This document shows positions 2,567 to 26,694 of a stretch of 64,000 nt of DNA, piece by piece. The stretch covers positions 1-64,000 of IMG/VR virus record IMGVR_UViG_3300043464_002317, one strand, 5' to 3'. The position numbers were made by a program, and so were the translations under genes. The DNA is from a virus. The notes beneath the pieces were generated by a model. It was not told where the DNA came from, searched no databases, and saw nothing but the letters and a program-made list of their open reading frames with translations. Within the stretch, counting starts at the first letter, position 1. Each line of letters begins with the position of its first letter.

Positions 2567-3222
2567 TTCTTATAGGTAAAGTCTAATATTTTTTGAACGA
2601 GGTCATGTCTGTGGTTTCCTTTTAGGTCTATTCTTTTAATTTCATCAAAGTGATTAGATAGGTTTATTACCCAAGATAAGCCGTCATTTTGAGAAGTTAT
2701 GTCCTTTTGTTGCAAATCTCCGAGCAACACTATTTTACCTGTTTTGCCAAGCCTTGTTACTAAAGCTTCCATCTCTTTTTGGGTACTGTTTTGAGCTTCA
2801 TCTACAATAACAAAATTAGAAAAAGTTTTTCCACGGACAAACTGCAAAGCTTGTTCCTTTATAATGTCTTTTTCAAGATATTCTTTTATTTTAGTTTTAT
2901 TAATTGAACATGTTTCAAGATTTTCTATAAACGCCTCAAAATACGGGGAGAGTTTGGATGTTAAATCTCCAGGCATAAAACCTAATGTTTTGCCTACTTC
3001 AACAGTTGGTCTAAATAAGACTATATTATCTGCCATTTTTTTAGCTAAGAAATGTAGAGCGCAATGAGCTGCACATAAACTTTTTCCGCTGCCAGGTCTT
3101 CCTGTAATAATTGTTATAGGATTTTCATAAATATATTTAGAAGCTAACTTTTGCTCCTCATTCAGTTGAATAGCATTAATCTCTTTAATTTCTGATTTTC
3201 TTTCTCTATTTGCCTCTTTCAT
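2563..3222 (-). CDS. phoH: PhoH-like P-loop ATPase, 219 aa
   Basis: A cytoplasmic P-loop ATPase of the PhoH family. Visible motifs: Walker A GRPGSGKS (residues 41-48); the family-specific RPTVEVGKTLGFMPGDL (71-87) followed by K..PY; and Walker B VIVDEAQN (138-145), then GDLQQ (sensor). The length is typical of the stand-alone phage form. PhoH is widespread in phages; the family is related to RNA helicase/nuclease modules, and its role in infection is unsettled. It starts inside a tiny upstream membrane-peptide frame (ATGA overlap) and ends overlapping a 50-aa gene. Confidence 0.9.
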   Translation of the reverse strand: MKEANRERKSEIKEINAIQLNEEQKLASKYIYENPITIITGRPGSGKSLCAAHCALHFLAKKMADNIVLFRPTVEVGKTLGFMPGDLTSKLSPYFEAFIENLETCSINKTKIKEYLEKDIIKEQALQFVRGKTFSNFVIVDEAQNSTQKEMEALVTRLGKTGKIVLLGDLQQKDITSQNDGLSWVINLSNHFDEIKRIDLKGNHRHDLVQKILDFTYKK

Positions 3223-3305
3223 TTCTTATTTTTAATTATACTCACTAATATTTCTACTCCTGCTATAAATAACGCCATTATTACTATTAATATAAATTCT
3301 TTCAT
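3219..3305 (-). CDS. Membrane micropeptide upstream of phoH, 28 aa
   Basis: MKEFILIVIMALFIAGVEIL plus VSIIKNKK: a single predicted transmembrane helix with a basic C-terminal tail, presumably cytoplasmic. The stop overlaps the phoH start (ATGA), which argues that it is translated. No family assigned. Confidence 0.45.
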   Translation of the reverse strand: MKEFILIVIMALFIAGVEILVSIIKNKK

Positions 3306-3320
3306 AGTGTTTAACTGAAA

Positions 3321-3821
3321 TTATTTTAAAATTGTAGCTTTTACAATACTTGCAAGCTGCTCGGTTGTGAAATAAACATCTTCTCCATTCATCAGTTTTT
3401 TTCTTTGTTGTAATGAAATTCCTTTCGTCCCGAATATTTTTCGAGAATGGTTGGTCAATATCTTTTTAGATATTTCTAATTTAATTTGGTCTTCAGTAGT
3501 ACTTGGTTTTCCTTCAAAGCCTACGTATATTGGAGTAGATACCTGATGATATGCTCCTATGCAAGAGCCGATTATATGTTTTTTACACTGCGCTCTGATA
3601 AATAGCTCAAAAGCTGAGGAGTACAATTGCCCCCAGCCATATAAAATAGTGCGTTCTTTGTTTCTGTTTATAACTGATGAAGTTACAGCCATTATATCAT
3701 GGTCTCCTCCTTCAGAGTTTACATATAAATGTAATATATCGTTTTCTTGTAAGCTGTTATAAGCGTTGATAATCGCTTCTAAAAAGCTATCAGTAATTTC
3801 AGATTTTAAGTTAAGCCACAT
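3321..3821 (-). CDS. ClpP-like serine peptidase (S14/SppA-type crotonase fold), 166 aa
   Basis: The pattern follows ClpP. LHLYVNSEGGD (30-40) matches the oxyanion-loop INSPGG. GWGQLYSSAFELF (62-74) aligns with G-x-A-A-S-M-G, making Ser68 the likely nucleophile. IGAYHQVS (88-95) supplies the likely catalytic His92 (MIHQP in ClpP). EDVYFTTEQLASIV near the end matches the D-x-x-L-T-A-E-E-A region. It is shorter than bacterial ClpP (about 195-200 aa). In phages such enzymes often act as prohead proteases; here it lies far from the capsid genes, so a role in virion-protein processing is inference. It overlaps the next gene by 11 bp. Confidence 0.65.
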   Translation of the reverse strand: MWLNLKSEITDSFLEAIINAYNSLQENDILHLYVNSEGGDHDIMAVTSSVINRNKERTILYGWGQLYSSAFELFIRAQCKKHIIGSCIGAYHQVSTPIYVGFEGKPSTTEDQIKLEISKKILTNHSRKIFGTKGISLQQRKKLMNGEDVYFTTEQLASIVKATILK

Positions 3822-8696: not shown

Positions 8697-9096
8697 TAGG
8701 GTTTTAACAACAAAAGAAATAATTAAAAGTTTTTGCGAGGATTATGGCTATGAAGAAGATTATGTTTATAAAATTTTTAAAACTGTACGAGACGATATAC
8801 TAAAAAACTTTGCAGAAGAGAAACCTGAGTTCAGAGTAAGAAAATTTGGAATGTTTTATTCTCCAGTTAAACTTACCGAGAGAACACTTAAGAAAACACG
8901 AGCAAAAGTAAAAGCAAGTGCTAAATACCCAAAGTTTCAAAAAAGGCATGACGACTTGAAAATCAAAGAGTTAAAACTTGAAAAAAGACTAGAAAACGCA
9001 AAGAAAAATAAAAAATTAATTGATAATTCAGTTCTTAGAATTAGAAATCCTTACGATAAAACAACAATGTCAATAAAAAGAATTAAAAATGCATAA
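8665..9096 (+). CDS. Possible IHF/HU-like DNA-binding protein, 143 aa
   Basis: Residues about 12-58 (TTKEIIKSFCEDYGY...VRDDILKNF, then RVRKFGMFYSPVK) follow the HU/IHF layout of a helical base and a beta arm starting V-x-K-F-G-x-F. The C-terminal half is a very basic, probably coiled-coil extension. The start is uncertain: a TTG at 8665 gives 143 aa, and a TTG at 8677 would also work; all overlap the preceding gene. crAss-like phages encode IHF-like subunits, which fits, but resemblance here is modest. Confidence 0.5.
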   Translation: MQSVLSTKKSDRVLTTKEIIKSFCEDYGYEEDYVYKIFKTVRDDILKNFAEEKPEFRVRKFGMFYSPVKLTERTLKKTRAKVKASAKYPKFQKRHDDLKIKELKLEKRLENAKKNKKLIDNSVLRIRNPYDKTTMSIKRIKNA

Positions 9097-9685
9097 AATA
9101 AGACCTAAAAAAATAGCCGAAGGCTTTAGTAAAGCAGTTGTTTCTGCAACAATAGGGAACAAATCTGAAGAAGCTTCTTCTCGAATTTCTGTTTGCAATA
9201 ATTGCGAAAATTTAACAAAAATTAGAAGTTGCACTTTATGTGGTTGCCAAGTCGATGCAAAAGTAGAAGTTAATACAGAGTATTGCCCAGCAAATAAATG
9301 GGAAGATGTTAAAGTAATACCATCTTTAGGTGTAGGTATTAAAAACTTGTCTTCTGAAACAGCTACCTTGTCTCTTGCAGGCGAAAGAATTTATTTAGAA
9401 TTTAAACAAATTCAAAAACAAAATATCCCTGCTGAAATCAACTTACTTTTAATCAACGATAGGGCTAACTTTTTTGAAGAAAACCAAAAACTTACAAAAC
9501 TAAAATTAGTTGCCACTTGTGGGTGCACTATTTTAAACAAAATAAAGGAAGACCTTACAGATGGTGACGATACAGAAATAAAAGCTCAATACAACAATGC
9601 AGCATTAGGTACGTTTTCAAAAACTTTCATTATAAAATCAAACGAAATAGAATTTAGAATAACTTTAAAAGGAAAAACAGAATGA
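9089..9685 (+). CDS. Zinc-ribbon-containing protein, 198 aa
   Basis: N-terminal C36-x2-C39, C48-x2-C51-G-C53 and C66-P form the phage zinc-ribbon pattern C..C.....C..CGC.V..K......CP..KW seen in many tailed-phage hypothetical proteins. The C-terminal about 115 residues are predicted beta-rich (SLAGERIYLEFKQI..., FRITLKGK). Role unknown; it could be a small virion or DNA-binding protein. Overlaps neighbours by a few bases on both sides, so it is within the operon starting at 8322. Confidence 0.6.
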   Translation: MHKIRPKKIAEGFSKAVVSATIGNKSEEASSRISVCNNCENLTKIRSCTLCGCQVDAKVEVNTEYCPANKWEDVKVIPSLGVGIKNLSSETATLSLAGERIYLEFKQIQKQNIPAEINLLLINDRANFFEENQKLTKLKLVATCGCTILNKIKEDLTDGDDTEIKAQYNNAALGTFSKTFIIKSNEIEFRITLKGKTE

Positions 9686-10469: not shown

Positions 10470-13400
10470 ATGGAAACTATACAAAAACCAAAATTAGCTT
10501 ACAAAGATTTTCTAATCAATCAAAACCAACCTACAAGGGACAGCGCAGAGTATGTCCCTTTTTGGCTTAAACATATTGAATATTGCAAGTCTGGTGTTAG
10601 TGTAGGTGGAATAGAGATTTCTGGTTGGCTATATTGGCATTTAAATTTTTTCAAAATACCTGTAGATGAAAAAGATAAATACGGCAATAAGATACGTGTT
10701 ATCACATCACCACCTCTAAGAGATAACGAGTATTATTTGAATTGGGGGCGTGAAAAAGGTTACAAAGAACAAAAACCTATCATAATTTTCGGAAGTAGAC
10801 GTATTGCTAAATCAACTGTATTAGCCTCAGATATTTGTTATTCTCTATTTATTATGCTCAATAGTAATTCTGTTGTTATTGGAGCAAGTACAGTTGATAT
10901 TAATAATATTACAGATTATATTACATTTTTCTATTCAAATAGACCCGAATGTTTTTCAGATTTAATGAAATTTGGAGATTTTACAAGAGAAGGGGGCAAT
11001 GTAGAAATAGCTTTTAGTAAAAGAGAAACAACTAAAAAAGACCCAACAACAGGAAAGGCTGGACTTATTAATCCAATAACACCTCACTTGCTAAAAATAG
11101 GCAACGACAATAAATACATTTTTTCAACCCTTTCTGTTAGAAACTTAGAGTTTGGAACAAAGCACAATAAACAAGAAATGCTTGCAGGTATTACACCATC
11201 TAAGGTCATATTTGATGAGGTTGGTAAGTTTTCTTACTCTTTACCATTTTCAGCTTTAAAACCTGCCCTAATAGATTCTTTTGGAGAGTATCGTACAATC
11301 CCTATGTTTGTTGGGTGTTTAACAAAAGGAAATAAAGTATGGGACTCTGATGGAAATATGCTAAATATAGAGGATTTACAAAAGAACCAAGGGATAAAAG
11401 GATTTAGCATAAAAAATCAAGAGGTTACAAATGAAAAAATAACCTATTGGCAAAAACCATTTAAAAAACCATGTGTAAAAATTACAACAAATAAAGGTTT
11501 AGAAATAAGTTGCAGCACTGACCATCCTATTCTCTCAAGAAAATATTTAGAATCTCAAAAAAGAATTGGAAGAGCTATAAGTTTTGAAGAAGCCTCTAAA
11601 TTAAAAATCAATGATGTTGTTGCTGTTGCAGATATTATTCCCATTCAAGGGACTAAAAAAATGTGGAATCCATACTTAGTTGGTTGTTTAATAGGAGATA
11701 GCAGCTATGGTAAAGATAAAACACCAGTTCTTTCTAATGAGGATAATGAAATTTGGGAACATTTAGATAGTTTAAACATAAGTCATACAGTAGAAAAATC
11801 TTACACTACTAAAAAAAACAGATTATATAAAGAGGTAAGAATTAAAAGTATAACGCAAAAGTTACGAGAATTAGGAATTTATGGACAAACAAAAAAAGAC
11901 AAAGATTTGCCTATAAATATTCACTCTTATGATAAAGAATCTATATGTGAACTTATAGCTGGATTAATAGATACAGACGGTTGTATTTTAAATATTCCAT
12001 CAAACAGAAATATTACATTAACAAGTAGCTCTAAAAAACTTGTAGATAGTTTAAAACTTTTATTATTAAGAATCGGTATTCATTCAAATATTGATGTTAA
12101 AAGAGATAAAAGAATTGGCAGAAAAATAATGCCAAAAGAGGAGTTTTATTTGATAGGCATATATGATAAAGCATCCATAGATAGATTCTATGAAAATATT
12201 CCAATTAAAATTAACAGGAAAAAAGAAACTCTACAACAATTAGTCGACTACTATAAGAATAGAAAAAGTAAAAAAAGTCAGAAATATGCAGGTTTAAGGT
12301 TTGAAAAAATTTCAAAAATTGAAGATATAGGAGAACAAGAAGTCTATAATCTTACAGCTGGAACTACAAATACATATCTTGCTAATGGAATTGTTACCCA
12401 TAATACAGGGGGTGATATTGATAGCTCTAAAGACGCTGAAAGAGACTTCTTAAATGCGGAAGAAAATGGATTTCTAGCTGTAAATTCAGAAGAATATAAA
12501 AATTTAGTAACCGAGGGTAATTTTGAATACAAACAAAAAAGTAATTTAAAAACAGGTTTTTTTGCCCCTGCACAGATGTGTAATGCAGGAGGTGTGAAAA
12601 AAGAAATTCCTATATCCGCATACATTCGTAAATCTTATACTAATGAAGACTTAGAGGATTTAGAAGGTTTTATCATTCAAGTGACAGATTGGGTATCAGC
12701 TCCAGAGAACTTACAAAAAGAAATTCAAATAGAGGAGAAAAAATCAGATAAGGAAGGTAAAAAAGCTAAAATGTACTATCCTTTTCAACCAGAGGATTGT
12801 TTTTTATACTCTGGCAATAATCCTTTTCCAGTAGAAGAAGCTAAAGTTACCTTACAAAAAATAAAAGATTCTGGTAATATAGGAGAAAAAGTTATTTTAA
12901 AGCAAGAAATAAATGGAACTATAATTATTGAACCTTCAAGTAAGAGATTAATAGAAACCTACCCTTTTGAAGGAGGAACACACGATGCTCCATGTGTAAT
13001 GTACGAAAGACCAATTCATGATAACCCTTATGAAATTAGAAAAGGCATCTACGTAGCAGGATTTGACGGATATAAAATAGCAGAATCTAAAACAACAGAC
13101 TCTGTAGGTACTTTTTATATTTATAAGAGAATGTGTGGTTTGGATGGATTGCAAAATCAGATAGTGTTCAGTTTAGCAACTAGACCTCCAAAAGATGAAG
13201 ATTTTTATCAACAAGTTATGCTTGCTGTTTTAAAATATAACGCTGATTTACTTCCAGAACGAGATACTAATCTCTATAATTTTTTAGCAAATAAAAAAAT
13301 GGAACATCTTATTGTCAATTGTCAATCTGTTGTATTTAGATATACTCCAAACACAAATGCTAGTACAACCTATGGATTACCTGCCACACCGCAAAATAAA

Positions 13401-13712
13401 GAGCATTATCTTAAAATGATTCAAAAGTATTGTAATGATAATGTTTTAATAGGTTATACTGATAATGATGAACCTATAACCATAAAAGGAGTTGAAAGAA
13501 TAACAGACCCAATACTGTTAAAAGAGATAATAGATTATGGTAAAGAAAAAAATGCCGATAGATTAGCGGCTTTTGGACATGCCCTTGTTTGGGATAACGA
13601 GTTACAAACCAGAGGGGTTATCGCAACACAAGACCCATATAAACCACCAACACAAACAAAACCAGTTCGTAAACAATCCACATTTTCAACAATCATGGGA
13701 AGACACAGGTAA
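10470..13712 (+). CDS. terL: Terminase large subunit precursor with intein, 1080 aa
   Basis: The DNA-packaging motor ATPase/nuclease. Walker A-like GSRRIAKST (residues 108-116), Walker B VIFDE (246-250) and, after the intein, the C-terminal nuclease with AGFDGYK (Asp866 of the precursor). An intein occupies residues 283-645, inserted in the ATPase coupling motif (MFVG | TGG). Splicing would leave a 717-aa terminase, a normal crAss-like length. The ATG follows the tRNA by 6 nt. No late composite promoter precedes it, so it is probably transcribed from 8282. Confidence 0.95.
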   Translation: METIQKPKLAYKDFLINQNQPTRDSAEYVPFWLKHIEYCKSGVSVGGIEISGWLYWHLNFFKIPVDEKDKYGNKIRVITSPPLRDNEYYLNWGREKGYKEQKPIIIFGSRRIAKSTVLASDICYSLFIMLNSNSVVIGASTVDINNITDYITFFYSNRPECFSDLMKFGDFTREGGNVEIAFSKRETTKKDPTTGKAGLINPITPHLLKIGNDNKYIFSTLSVRNLEFGTKHNKQEMLAGITPSKVIFDEVGKFSYSLPFSALKPALIDSFGEYRTIPMFVGCLTKGNKVWDSDGNMLNIEDLQKNQGIKGFSIKNQEVTNEKITYWQKPFKKPCVKITTNKGLEISCSTDHPILSRKYLESQKRIGRAISFEEASKLKINDVVAVADIIPIQGTKKMWNPYLVGCLIGDSSYGKDKTPVLSNEDNEIWEHLDSLNISHTVEKSYTTKKNRLYKEVRIKSITQKLRELGIYGQTKKDKDLPINIHSYDKESICELIAGLIDTDGCILNIPSNRNITLTSSSKKLVDSLKLLLLRIGIHSNIDVKRDKRIGRKIMPKEEFYLIGIYDKASIDRFYENIPIKINRKKETLQQLVDYYKNRKSKKSQKYAGLRFEKISKIEDIGEQEVYNLTAGTTNTYLANGIVTHNTGGDIDSSKDAERDFLNAEENGFLAVNSEEYKNLVTEGNFEYKQKSNLKTGFFAPAQMCNAGGVKKEIPISAYIRKSYTNEDLEDLEGFIIQVTDWVSAPENLQKEIQIEEKKSDKEGKKAKMYYPFQPEDCFLYSGNNPFPVEEAKVTLQKIKDSGNIGEKVILKQEINGTIIIEPSSKRLIETYPFEGGTHDAPCVMYERPIHDNPYEIRKGIYVAGFDGYKIAESKTTDSVGTFYIYKRMCGLDGLQNQIVFSLATRPPKDEDFYQQVMLAVLKYNADLLPERDTNLYNFLANKKMEHLIVNCQSVVFRYTPNTNASTTYGLPATPQNKEHYLKMIQKYCNDNVLIGYTDNDEPITIKGVERITDPILLKEIIDYGKEKNADRLAAFGHALVWDNELQTRGVIATQDPYKPPTQTKPVRKQSTFSTIMGRHR
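11316..12404 (+). mobile_element. Intein with LAGLIDADG homing endonuclease in terL
   Basis: The insertion begins at Cys283 (CLTKGNKVWDSDG, splicing block A) and ends with the canonical block G ...YLANGIVTHN, His644-Asn645, followed by Thr646 as the +1 nucleophile. Between them are STDHPIL (block B, T-x-x-H) and two LAGLIDADG helices, YLVGCLIGDSSYG (402-414) and ELIAGLIDTDG (494-504), so the endonuclease looks intact. At 363 aa it is a full-size splicing-plus-homing element. Confidence 0.93.
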
Positions 13713-23281: not shown

Positions 23282-24385
23282 ATGGCTTGGAATGGTAATT
23301 TAAAAGATAATAAAAAAGTAAAAGATATACTTGGCGAAAAAATTTTTAACAAAGTTGTTAAAATTTTAGACGCTTGTTGTGGAGGAATCTCAAAAGATGG
23401 CAATCCAAATGCTTTTCTTAATCAACAAGGGGAATGGGTAGAAGGAGGTGGAGGCTCTCAAGATTTACAACAAGTTACAGATGTAGGCAATACTACTGAT
23501 AATGATATTCAATTTGATGTAGGAGTTGGGATACTATTAGATAATAGTTCAAGACTAAGAGAGGGGACAATTGATGCAGGTTTAGGAGGGAATAAAGGTA
23601 TTGCACAAATTTGCGGTTTAGGTTATGAATTAAAATGGGAAGCAGGGTCATTGTATGTAATGAATGGTAGTGGTAATGGAATAAGACAATCATTATATAA
23701 TTTTACTACAGTACCAACAATAACAGATGATGATACAAAAGGATATACTGTAGGCTCATTATGGACTTTGGATAATAATGACACTTATGTATGTACTGAC
23801 GCAAGTACAGGTGCTGCTGTTTGGGCATTAAAACCTAGTTCTGGATATATTTATGAAATAGGTCAATATGTTGCAGCAGAAGGCGGTGTAATTGCTCATA
23901 GATGGTTATCTGCATCATCACTTGGTTCACCTACTTCTGGCACTATTCAAAATTATTTGGTTGTAGATACAGCAAATTTATCAACATCAGCTTTATGGGC
24001 TAGTTCAAATGTGAATATATCTAATGTTGAAAGTACTTGGGATGGAACAACTAATACAGCAAATTTAATTGCTGCTGGAGCAGGTGGAGGTATAACAGCA
24101 GGTACAGCAGCAGTTTTATGTAATAATAGCACAAACAATAGTAAATTAGATTGGTATCTTCCAGCTGTTGATGAGTTATCTAAAATATGGCAAAATAGAT
24201 GGGATATATCACAAGGTATAACTACTGCTAGTGGAACACAAATAGGATTTAACTTTTATTGGAGTAGTTCGGAGCTTGACACCACCTACGCTTGGGTTTT
24301 ATCCTTCTACGATGGGGTTGCCTATGACGGCTTCAGTAAGAACGCCACCTACTATGTGCGTGCAGTAAGAAAATTCAGTATTTAA
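23282..24385 (+). CDS. C-type-lectin-like adhesin with DGR-type variable end, 367 aa
   Basis: Residues about 1-50 form the anchor module shared with the next two genes (LGEKIFNKVV, DACCGGIS, FLNQQGEW). The C-terminal 130 or so residues match DUF1566/FISUMP-type C-type-lectin folds: WYLPAVDELSKIWQNR, then FNFYWSSSEL, a hypervariable stretch, and YYVRAVRKFSI. This is the fold most often diversified by retroelements. Probably a receptor-binding adhesin at the virion surface. The last 110 bp have strikingly different codon use (see variable region). Confidence 0.8.
   Translation: MAWNGNLKDNKKVKDILGEKIFNKVVKILDACCGGISKDGNPNAFLNQQGEWVEGGGGSQDLQQVTDVGNTTDNDIQFDVGVGILLDNSSRLREGTIDAGLGGNKGIAQICGLGYELKWEAGSLYVMNGSGNGIRQSLYNFTTVPTITDDDTKGYTVGSLWTLDNNDTYVCTDASTGAAVWALKPSSGYIYEIGQYVAAEGGVIAHRWLSASSLGSPTSGTIQNYLVVDTANLSTSALWASSNVNISNVESTWDGTTNTANLIAAGAGGGITAGTAAVLCNNSTNNSKLDWYLPAVDELSKIWQNRWDISQGITTASGTQIGFNFYWSSSELDTTYAWVLSFYDGVAYDGFSKNATYYVRAVRKFSI
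24257..24370 (+). other. Candidate DGR variable region (VR)
   Basis: From the TAT-TGG of YWSSSE to the YVRAVR codons, about half the codons end in C (GAC ACC ACC TAC ... TCC TTC TAC ... GCC ... GAC GGC TTC ... AAC GCC ACC TAC), whereas flanking phage genes strongly prefer A/T in third position. That is what results when AAC codons in a template repeat are mutated at their adenines. Boundaries approximate; template repeat and reverse transcriptase are not in this window. Confidence 0.7.
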
Positions 24386-24409
24386 TATAAATTTTAAAAA
24401 CCAAAAAAT

Positions 24410-24688
24410 ATGACAAACATAGAAAACTTAAAAGAAAACAGAAAAGTAAAAGATATTCTAGGCGAAAAAATCTTTAACAAAGTTGTAAAAATTTTAGATG
24501 CTTGCTGCGGTGGAATCTCAAAAAACGGAGATTCAGCAAAAGTCTTAACACAAACAGGAGAATTTCTTCCTACATCTGACGTATTATTTCTACTACCGTC
24601 ATATGCTGACGATGTAGCAGCTGGCGCAGGTGGTTTAGTTGAAGGACAATTATATAGAACAGCGAGTGTAGTTAAAGTTAAGCTTTAA
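24410..24688 (+). CDS. Short anchor-domain paralogue, 92 aa
   Basis: Residues 8-45 are nearly identical to the anchor of the preceding adhesin (KVKDILGEKIFNKVVKILD then ACCGGIS). The rest (SYADDVAAGAGGLVEGQLYR then TASVVKVKL) is a short phage-fibre-like ending often seen as a C-terminal tip in Bacteroidota phage proteins. It could be a small virion cap/decoy, or a remnant adhesin that has lost its receptor domain. Confidence 0.7.
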   Translation: MTNIENLKENRKVKDILGEKIFNKVVKILDACCGGISKNGDSAKVLTQTGEFLPTSDVLFLLPSYADDVAAGAGGLVEGQLYRTASVVKVKL

Positions 24689-24735: not shown

Positions 24736-26694
24736 ATGAGCCTCAATCAACAACAACCTGATAAGTTAAGATATTTTTTTGGGAATAACCTCTACTACAA
24801 GTTCAAAAAAGTTTTTGACGCTTGTTGTGGAGGTATCTCCTTTAAAGGAGATGAAAACAAATTTTTAAATCAACAAGGAGATTTTGTTGAAGCGACTGCC
24901 TCAGCTTCTATTGAAGACATTACCTATTTAGAACTATACAATCTTACAATAAATGAAGAATTAACACCTCTTCAATGGTATAGACTTACAGATTATAAAT
25001 CAGTAAATTTTCTTAATGGATGGCAAATAGCTAATGAAAATTCTAATTTTAACAACAATGCTCCAACCGACCCTAATTTTATTCCGAGAGAAGTTTATAC
25101 AGGAGATACAGAAGTTCTTTTACTTCAAGCAATTACAGAATCAGAAATTTCACCAATAGGTTATTCAGAAACTTATCCACAAGATATTATCCAGTATAAT
25201 CCTTTGGTAAATAAAATTGGAGTTGGTTTGTATATAAATAATGGTGCTACATTACCTAATTTATCAGTAGTTTCAGGCTTTGACCTTCAATGGGATGGCA
25301 CTAATGCTTATTTTGAAATGCCAATCGGTTATCCTGCTTTATTTGGACATTATTTTCGTATTTATTTTACTTTAGATAGTGGTAATGTTGTAAACGAGGG
25401 AGTATTTGAACCTTTAAATTCAGGAATAGCTACTTGTCAATTTCCCGAATCAACTGTAGTTACAAGAATTAAAGTAGAAAATGGAGGAACAAAAATTTTA
25501 CTGTTAGATATAACCCAACAGGATGTAAATGATTACGATATAAATACGCTTTTTGTTGAAACAGTAACAGCAATAGAAAACGCTTACGGTTGGATTGAAA
25601 GAAGACAAGATACAGAAAGAAATATAGATGTTCCTTTCGACTTTAGAGGTAGAAAATATCGTAGATTTGAAATAGATATGTCACCTATACACCCTTCATT
25701 TGGAATAGTTTATGCAGGTATTGGTGATGATTATAAAAATTTAGGTACTACTGGAAATTATAAAGACTTTCCATGTTTTAGTGAAACTAACTCAACTTTC
25801 GATATTCAATGGAACGATATGGGGAGTCCTGACTCTTACTATTTTAGAGGGTTAAATGATAATAATGTATTTCAAGGTGTTTTTGTAGCTAATAATTTAC
25901 AATGGACAGTGAGGGATAATACAGGTATTGAAGAAATAACTTTAAATCGCATTGAAAATTTTTTTTCGTTGAATATAATAGTTTCTATGTCATCGAACAA
26001 TATTAAAGATGGTTTTGAATCTAGTGTTATTGGCAATTATTTTTCCAACAATAACGTAAAAAGTGGTTTTTATAATAACGTAATAGTTAGAGATTTTTAT
26101 AATAACAATATAGGGGTAAGCTTTTATGATAACATAACAAGTCAATATTTTATTAATAACACAGTAGGAGATGAGTTTGCTAATAACATTACAGGTGAAT
26201 ATTTTACCCAAAACACTATAGGAAATTATTTTCAAGACAACGAAATAGGTGATAACTTTCAAAGTAATAACATAGGTAATGTATTTGACAATAACAATAC
26301 AGGTAATTACTTTGTTTACAACAACATAGGTAATGATTTTAAAAACAACGAAATAGGTAATAGCTTCTTCAACAATAACACAGGTAATTACTTTGCTAAC
26401 ACCAATGTAGGTAATAGTTTTGGAAACAACTATATAGGTGAGAGCTTTCTTTCTAACAACATAGGTAATGACTTCTTAAACAACAATGTAGGTAATGACT
26501 TCTTAAACAACAATGTAGGTAATGACTTTCGATTAAATACCACAAAAGCATTAGTAAACGGTATAAATTTTACATCTGCTACTCATGTTTATGGTAATTA
26601 CAATTGTGAAATATTTAAAGCAAGTAATTCAATTCTATATTTAAGTTATTTTAATGGTACAGCAGTTGTATACCCAGCATCAATAAACTCATAA
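24736..26694 (+). CDS. Tail-fibre protein with anchor domain and 20 nonapeptide repeats, 652 aa
   Basis: The same anchor (DACCGGIS, FLNQQGDF) at residues about 30-55. A middle region with beta-strand-rich unknown domains follows. From residue 421 to 600 there are about 20 tandem 9-residue repeats of the form N-N-x-I/V/T-G-N-x-F-x, which should fold as a beta-solenoid shaft, and then a small C-terminal domain (FTSATHVYGNYNCEIF). A long fibre/spike for host contact is likely. The last repeats are identical at DNA level, indicating recent slippage. Confidence 0.75.
   Translation: MSLNQQQPDKLRYFFGNNLYYKFKKVFDACCGGISFKGDENKFLNQQGDFVEATASASIEDITYLELYNLTINEELTPLQWYRLTDYKSVNFLNGWQIANENSNFNNNAPTDPNFIPREVYTGDTEVLLLQAITESEISPIGYSETYPQDIIQYNPLVNKIGVGLYINNGATLPNLSVVSGFDLQWDGTNAYFEMPIGYPALFGHYFRIYFTLDSGNVVNEGVFEPLNSGIATCQFPESTVVTRIKVENGGTKILLLDITQQDVNDYDINTLFVETVTAIENAYGWIERRQDTERNIDVPFDFRGRKYRRFEIDMSPIHPSFGIVYAGIGDDYKNLGTTGNYKDFPCFSETNSTFDIQWNDMGSPDSYYFRGLNDNNVFQGVFVANNLQWTVRDNTGIEEITLNRIENFFSLNIIVSMSSNNIKDGFESSVIGNYFSNNNVKSGFYNNVIVRDFYNNNIGVSFYDNITSQYFINNTVGDEFANNITGEYFTQNTIGNYFQDNEIGDNFQSNNIGNVFDNNNTGNYFVYNNIGNDFKNNEIGNSFFNNNTGNYFANTNVGNSFGNNYIGESFLSNNIGNDFLNNNVGNDFLNNNVGNDFRLNTTKALVNGINFTSATHVYGNYNCEIFKASNSILYLSYFNGTAVVYPASINS
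25996..26535 (+). repeat. 27-bp coding minisatellite (about 20 copies)
   Basis: In-frame 27-bp units encode NNxIGNxFx. Copies toward the 3' end (around 26452-26532) are almost identical, while those at the 5' end are degenerate. This gradient suggests expansion/contraction at the 3' side. Confidence 0.85.

What the first reader, a model, noticed from the sequence alone, without database searches (positions are those of the whole stretch)
24257..24370. Candidate diversity-generating retroelement variable region in a phage adhesin
The C-type-lectin-like end of the 367-aa adhesin has YWSSSEL before and YYVRAVR after a segment in which about half the codons end in C, while surrounding genes are strongly A/T-ending. 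AAC codons in a template repeat mutated at adenines produce exactly such NNC codons. The fold and its position at the protein C-terminus fit known DGR targets. No reverse transcriptase or template copy is in the window, so the rest would lie elsewhere in the genome, or the variability may be a fossil.
Basis: partly seen in the sequence, partly recalled or inferred. Interest (0 to 1): 0.88.

Follow-up and report, generated by a model that had tools for sequence, protein, structure and literature searches.

The report
Phage adhesin hypervariable patch, host-type template
The tip of a tail-adhesin-like protein in this phage carries a patch scrambled in the manner of a known bacterial mutation machine (a diversity-generating retroelement), but the machine and its template are absent from the phage record and turn up instead in chromosomes of Bacteroidota bacteria, so many unrelated phages may be drawing binding-site diversity from their hosts.

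Summary
Codons 24275-24352 of the 367-aa adhesin end in C 15 times out of 26; the best 36-codon stretch (16/36) is the highest of all long ORFs in the 81-kb record. The patch is a DGR variable region (VR). Against a template repeat (TR) found in a Chitinophagaceae MAG (L058: target, Avd, TR, RT), the window differs at 24/43 adenine sites but 5/64 others (p=6e-8). 27 other distinct viral VRs show the same bias (pooled 44% vs 5.7%). Phages 98-99% identical over 5-10 kb differ in the VR almost only at adenine sites. Yet no RT is in the window's record or in 59 other virus records tested, no TR is in 36 tested, and TR-pattern scans of IMG/VR found no TR. The phage VRs also lack the CCGC-loop-GCGG hairpin that follows bacterial VRs of this family. 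Best reading: an orphan DGR target, renewed from a host-encoded DGR by cDNA in trans or by recombination with host VR alleles; the transfer step is inferred. The window copy has five third-position changes, so it may be ageing. Main rival: a DGR in unassembled phage sequence.

The parts
23282..24385 (+). Gene of the 367-aa adhesin-like protein (target gene)
   Evidence: ORF; follows capsid-region genes and precedes other tail-type genes; N-terminal part and residues 55-184 are shared with other phages that lack the Lcl_C tip
23834..24382 (+). C-terminal Lcl_C (C-type-lectin-like) domain, residues 185-367
   Evidence: Pfam PF07603 on residues 252-363; AlphaFold2 model (best of five, mean pLDDT 80.8) and Foldseek match to 8q4e
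24257..24366 (+). Variable region (VR), 110 bp, aligned to positions 1-107 of the bacterial TR in L058 with one extra codon
   Evidence: 24/43 adenine sites differ vs 5/64 other sites; Fisher p 6e-8
24257..24274 (+). 5' conserved block TATTGGAGTAGTTCGGAG (YWSSSE)
   Evidence: Same block (N at position 13) found in 43 IMG/VR stretches
24275..24352 (+). Hypervariable core, 26 codons, 15 ending in C
24353..24366 (+). 3' conserved block TATGTGCGTGCAGT, in the place of the initiation-of-mutagenic-homing end
   Evidence: Shared with phage VRs and bacterial VR/TR; role as IMH inferred from position
24367..24466 (+). Downstream stretch where bacterial VRs of this family have a CCGC-loop-GCGG hairpin; none here

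Best explanation
The segment is the variable region of a diversity-generating retroelement whose template and reverse transcriptase are not carried by the phage but by Bacteroidota of the kind it presumably infects. The Lcl_C domain at the tip of the adhesin forms the putative binding face. Its VR has been overwritten, since the domain diverged from its relatives, by sequence made from an AAC-rich bacterial template copied with random substitutions at adenines. The phage obtains this product in the infected cell either as mutagenised cDNA of the host DGR acting in trans (my estimate 0.35) or by short-homology exchange with a host VR allele (0.25). Shown: VR identity, adenine specificity, a bacterial template with Avd and RT, adenine-specific divergence between near-identical phages, and absence of RT, TR and hairpin from the phage records. 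Inferred: the transfer route, the host's identity, receptor binding.
For: A bacterial TR of the predicted all-AAC form exists with Avd and RT in L058. Window vs this TR: 24/43 adenine sites vs 5/64 others, p 6e-8; pooled 28 viral VRs 527/1196 vs 100/1767. Several phage VRs match it at every non-adenine site compared (L016, L029, L032, L033, L037, L051). Window vs L041: identity at codon positions 1-2 / 3 is 0.79/0.61 upstream but 0.64/0.80 in the VR. L031/L032 (98.6% over 4.9 kb) and L051/L053 (98-99.5% over about 9 kb) differ at 20/43 and 25/43 adenine sites with one non-adenine change each (L052 and L053 have the same VR). No RVT_1 in the window's record or 59 other virus records, of which nine VR-bearing ones exceed 50 kb. 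No TR in 36 records, in IMG/VR by two TR patterns, in INPHARED or in PLSDB.
Against: No read-level variation was seen. The window VR has 5 non-adenine mismatches, so its own renewal may have stopped or its template differs. Phage VRs lack the hairpin found after 9 bacterial VRs, which canonical retrohoming would want. L058 is not the exact donor: some phages have adenine-type codons upstream that its TR cannot give. Six of seven MAGs with such VRs show no TR of this kind either, so absence of a TR from an assembly is weak evidence. No host was linked to the window phage. Pairs at about 99.5% identity or more share their VR, so renewal is not frequent.
Confidence: 0.6

Rival explanations
1. The phage has its own complete DGR in sequence missing from these records.
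For: Records are linear and may be fragments; the window's record ends inside a polymerase-like ORF. TR regions may assemble badly. The 1-2 extra adenine-type codons upstream in L031/L032/L053 suggest a TR closer to the phage genes than L058.
Against: No RT in 59 other virus records, including 296, 120, 79, 74, 69, 69, 65, 61 and 58 kb ones with VRs; no TR pattern match in 2.9 million viral contigs; no relative of the L058 RT confirmed in IMG/VR.
Confidence: 0.17
2. Fossil: the VR was captured once from a DGR target and in this phage's lineage is no longer renewed.
For: Five third-position changes away from the TR; relatives with the same domain have lost the signature (L003, L011, L023); no hairpin.
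Against: 56% of adenine sites differ against 8% of the others, while upstream third positions are only 61% identical to L041, so the VR is younger than the domain; sister phages still change at adenines.
Confidence: 0.21
3. Ordinary protein evolution: C-ending codons reflect composition or fold constraint, without any DGR.
For: YWSS and VRAVR motifs are conserved in Lcl_C domains whether or not a DGR acts on them.
Against: Lcl_C domains without the signature (L011, L023, L050) keep the motifs with A/T-ending codons (third-position identity 0.24-0.35). Positions 1-2 vary more than position 3 inside the VR, the reverse of purifying selection. A real template with adenines at the variable sites exists.
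Confidence: 0.02

Closest known systems
Bacteroidota chromosomal DGR of L058 and relatives (Lcl_C target, bAvd, TR, RVT_1)
   Same: Same target domain, same TR/VR core down to every non-adenine base in several phages
   Different: The phage has only the VR; no Avd, TR or RT, and no hairpin after the VR
BPP-1 phage DGR (mtd target; PMC3240598)
   Same: Adenine-directed variation in the C-type-lectin-like tip of a phage receptor-binding type protein
   Different: BPP-1 carries TR, Avd and RT beside the target and needs a hairpin/cruciform after the VR; none of these is here
DGRs of crAss-like phages (crAssphage LMMB, PMC7290462; epsilon PMC11054128; zeta PMC12386605)
   Same: Probably related phage order with a DGR target in a tail-type protein
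   Different: LMMB carries its own RT and template according to its abstract; the window's record does not
DGRs acting in trans within one bacterial genome (Thiohalocapsa PB-PSB1, PMC10907252)
   Same: VR matches, at non-adenine sites, a TR that is not at the same locus; same criterion for action in trans
   Different: There TR and VR are in one genome; here they are in a bacterium and in phages
Legionella Lcl C-terminal domain (PDB 8q4e)
   Same: Best structural match of the target domain
   Different: Bacterial collagen-like adhesin; not examined here for a DGR

Membership tests
Diversity-generating retroelement (complete cassette) | VR whose differences from a TR fall on TR adenines | tested here: met
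   24/43 vs 5/64 for the window; 527/1196 vs 100/1767 pooled, with the TR taken from a bacterium
Diversity-generating retroelement (complete cassette) | Template repeat in the same genome | tested here: not met
   None in the 81-kb record; the record may be incomplete
Diversity-generating retroelement (complete cassette) | DGR-type reverse transcriptase | tested here: not met
   No RVT_1 in the record
DGR target (VR-bearing gene) | C-type-lectin-like domain at the C-terminus carrying the VR | tested here: met
   Lcl_C; fold match
DGR target (VR-bearing gene) | GC-rich hairpin shortly after the VR | tested here: not met
   None after the window VR; 0 of 25 viral VRs with CCGC-loop-GCGG against 9 bacterial VRs of the family
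DGR target (VR-bearing gene) | Current variation at TR-adenine sites within a population | not testable with these tools
   No reads held; assembled sister phages differ at adenine sites
Lcl_C domain (PF07603) | Score over Pfam's curated cut-off | tested here: met
   37.9 bits vs 34.9
Crassvirales phage | crAss-like TerL, portal and capsid genes | tested here: inconclusive
   TerL phrog_6681, portal phrog_6547; capsid nearest Cellulophaga phi17:2/phi4:1 and csAssE-Sib at about 30% identity; no tree was made

The most novel reading that the evidence does not exclude
Unrelated lineages of Bacteroidota phages keep orphan DGR targets whose sequence is renewed during infection by the host's own DGR (cDNA in trans, integrated by phage recombination rather than by hairpin-dependent retrohoming), so that the host's diversification machine retargets the phage's binding protein.
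Probability: 0.35. Interest if true: 0.88.

Novelty: new variant of a known kind. Interest (0 to 1): 0.72.

Why it matters
Phage DGRs are known as cassettes that carry target, template and reverse transcriptase together. Here one template core is shared by VRs in phages of different lineages that carry neither template nor enzyme, and by a chromosomal DGR of Bacteroidota. If the host supplies the diversity, evolution of phage binding proteins would depend on host DGR content, and surveys that look for targets next to an RT (PMC8144416 notes that it cannot see remote targets) would miss such phages. The missing hairpin makes the route directly testable.

Tried and rejected
Second VR or TR in the record: none. 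Ascertainment: the set was picked by the 5' block alone, without any demand on the VR body, and nearly all members still show the NNC body (exceptions L011, L023, L024, L050; L040 is a chance match). The weak second hit in the 296-kb record (G032, E 0.05) is a short AAC-repeat match. L109, the only new hit of the relaxed TR pattern in IMG/VR, lies inside an ORF of an unrelated protein. L059 (Verrucomicrobia MAG) is a chance match. RTs of G052, G053, G056 and G059 are not beside this TR. Elevated mismatch just upstream of the L031/L032 VR comes partly from one or two codons that seem to belong to the VR. Searches for papers on phages using a host DGR found none in the held library; weak evidence, as most subscription papers and preprints are not held. 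Relatives of a virus record cannot be drawn by the genome search. One search was a failed script, repeated; a wrong frame, repeated.

Full report
OBSERVATION. The 367-aa ORF 23282-24385 ends in a Lcl_C domain. Of 38 codons from 24257, 15 end in C, against 5% in the first 325 codons, and the best 36-codon window is the highest of all long ORFs in the record. The window is bases 1-64000 of an 81,322-bp linear virus record; the last 17,322 bases were also read.

WHAT IT IS. Scans of IMG/VR for the 3' block and for the 5' block found about 50 stretches. Nearly all of the 5'-block set have the same body: NNC codons separated by fixed GCG TGG, TTC, GGG, GCC and AAG. This predicts a template with AAC at the variable codons. 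A scan of bacterial genomes found it: L058, a Chitinophagaceae MAG contig, has a VR at 1645-1757 and an AAC-rich TR at 2286-2398. The contig holds a Lcl_C target gene, a bAvd gene, the TR and an RVT_1 gene, between a T9SS-sorted protein and a TetR regulator, so it looks cellular. RTs 53-68% identical lie at related TR/VR loci of other genomes of the same class.

ADENINE TEST. Against the L058 TR the window differs at 24 of 43 adenine sites and 5 of 64 others (Fisher p 6e-8); 28 distinct viral VRs including the window give 527/1196 and 100/1767. The cells are not independent, since phages and positions are related, so the pooled p-value is not to be taken literally. Other bacterial TRs fit worse (13-20 non-adenine mismatches for the window). 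Codon positions 1 and 2 vary more than position 3 inside the VR and less outside it. The fold does not force this: Lcl_C domains of L011, L023 and L050 have A/T-ending bodies.

STILL DIVERSIFYING IN OTHER PHAGES. L031/L032 and L051/L053 are 98-99.5% identical over most of 5-10 kb but differ at 20 and 25 of 43 adenine sites with one non-adenine change each. Some neighbouring stretches of L051/L053 are also diverged, so recombination takes part there. Pairs at about 99.5% or above share the VR, so renewal is intermittent.

NO ENZYME, NO TEMPLATE, NO HAIRPIN IN PHAGES. No RVT_1 was found in the window's record, nor in the 8, 40 and 3 virus records and their like; the 43 VR-bearing records counted sum to 1.61 Mb and ten, the window's included, exceed 50 kb. 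The count of 59 other records in the summary should be read as the 51 records: that is the number tested. 36 records, the window's included, hold one VR and no TR (L035 shows a second VR that BLAST did not list). Two TR patterns over all IMG/VR found no TR, and the TR is absent from INPHARED and PLSDB. Several of these records carry phage portal, TerL or replication genes, of more than one lineage. Nine bacterial VRs are followed at +37 to +43 by CCGC-loop-GCGG; no viral VR is.

MECHANISM. The simplest account is that phages obtain VRs from host DGRs. Because the hairpin is missing, integration by recombination seems more likely than ordinary retrohoming: the window encodes a UvsX-like recombinase and L053 a Sak4-like annealing protein. 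Whether the donor is cDNA or a host VR allele cannot be told from these data. L058 is a relative of the donor, not the donor: some phages have adenine-type codons one or two positions upstream that L058 cannot give.

THE WINDOW'S OWN COPY. Five third-position changes, one extra codon, and a middle part shared with L012 including TTA mean either some drift since the last overwriting or a slightly different template. It is a real VR, possibly ageing.

SETTING. TerL, portal and capsid point to a crAss-like phage distantly related to Cellulophaga phages. The Lcl_C module is shared by otherwise unrelated phages. The AlphaFold2 model has mean pLDDT 80.8 in the best of five models, the other four being about 45-50, so the fold match to 8q4e is supportive rather than firm.

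Noticed in passing
window 23282-24385, 24410-24688, 24736-26694: Three consecutive proteins share a near-identical N-terminal stretch (ILGEKIFNKVVKILDACCGGIS or similar), as if a common docking module carried different tips.
   Followed up: no
L053:8953-9300, L031:10171-10524, L020:4782-5222, L054:427-864: In a second class of phage targets the VR sits in a small Lcl_C protein of about 115 aa; in L053 it lies near uracil-DNA-glycosylase-like and DnaB-like genes, not in a tail region.
   Followed up: partly
L071, L073, L087, L110, L058 downstream of VR: Bacterial VRs of this DGR family carry a conserved CCGC-loop-GCGG hairpin about 40 bases after the VR, absent after the TRs.
   Followed up: partly
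L109:885-1697, 2971-3393, 8754-9221: An unrelated phage contig holds three similar genes with diverged C-terminal segments, perhaps targets of another DGR.
   Followed up: no
window 10470-13712: The 1080-aa TerL ORF matches a helicase-type family at residues 298-598 and TerL at 641-1046; an intein-like insertion is possible.
   Followed up: no
L001:15997-17322: The polymerase-like ORF at the end of the record has a stretch that looks like an intein or homing endonuclease.
   Followed up: no
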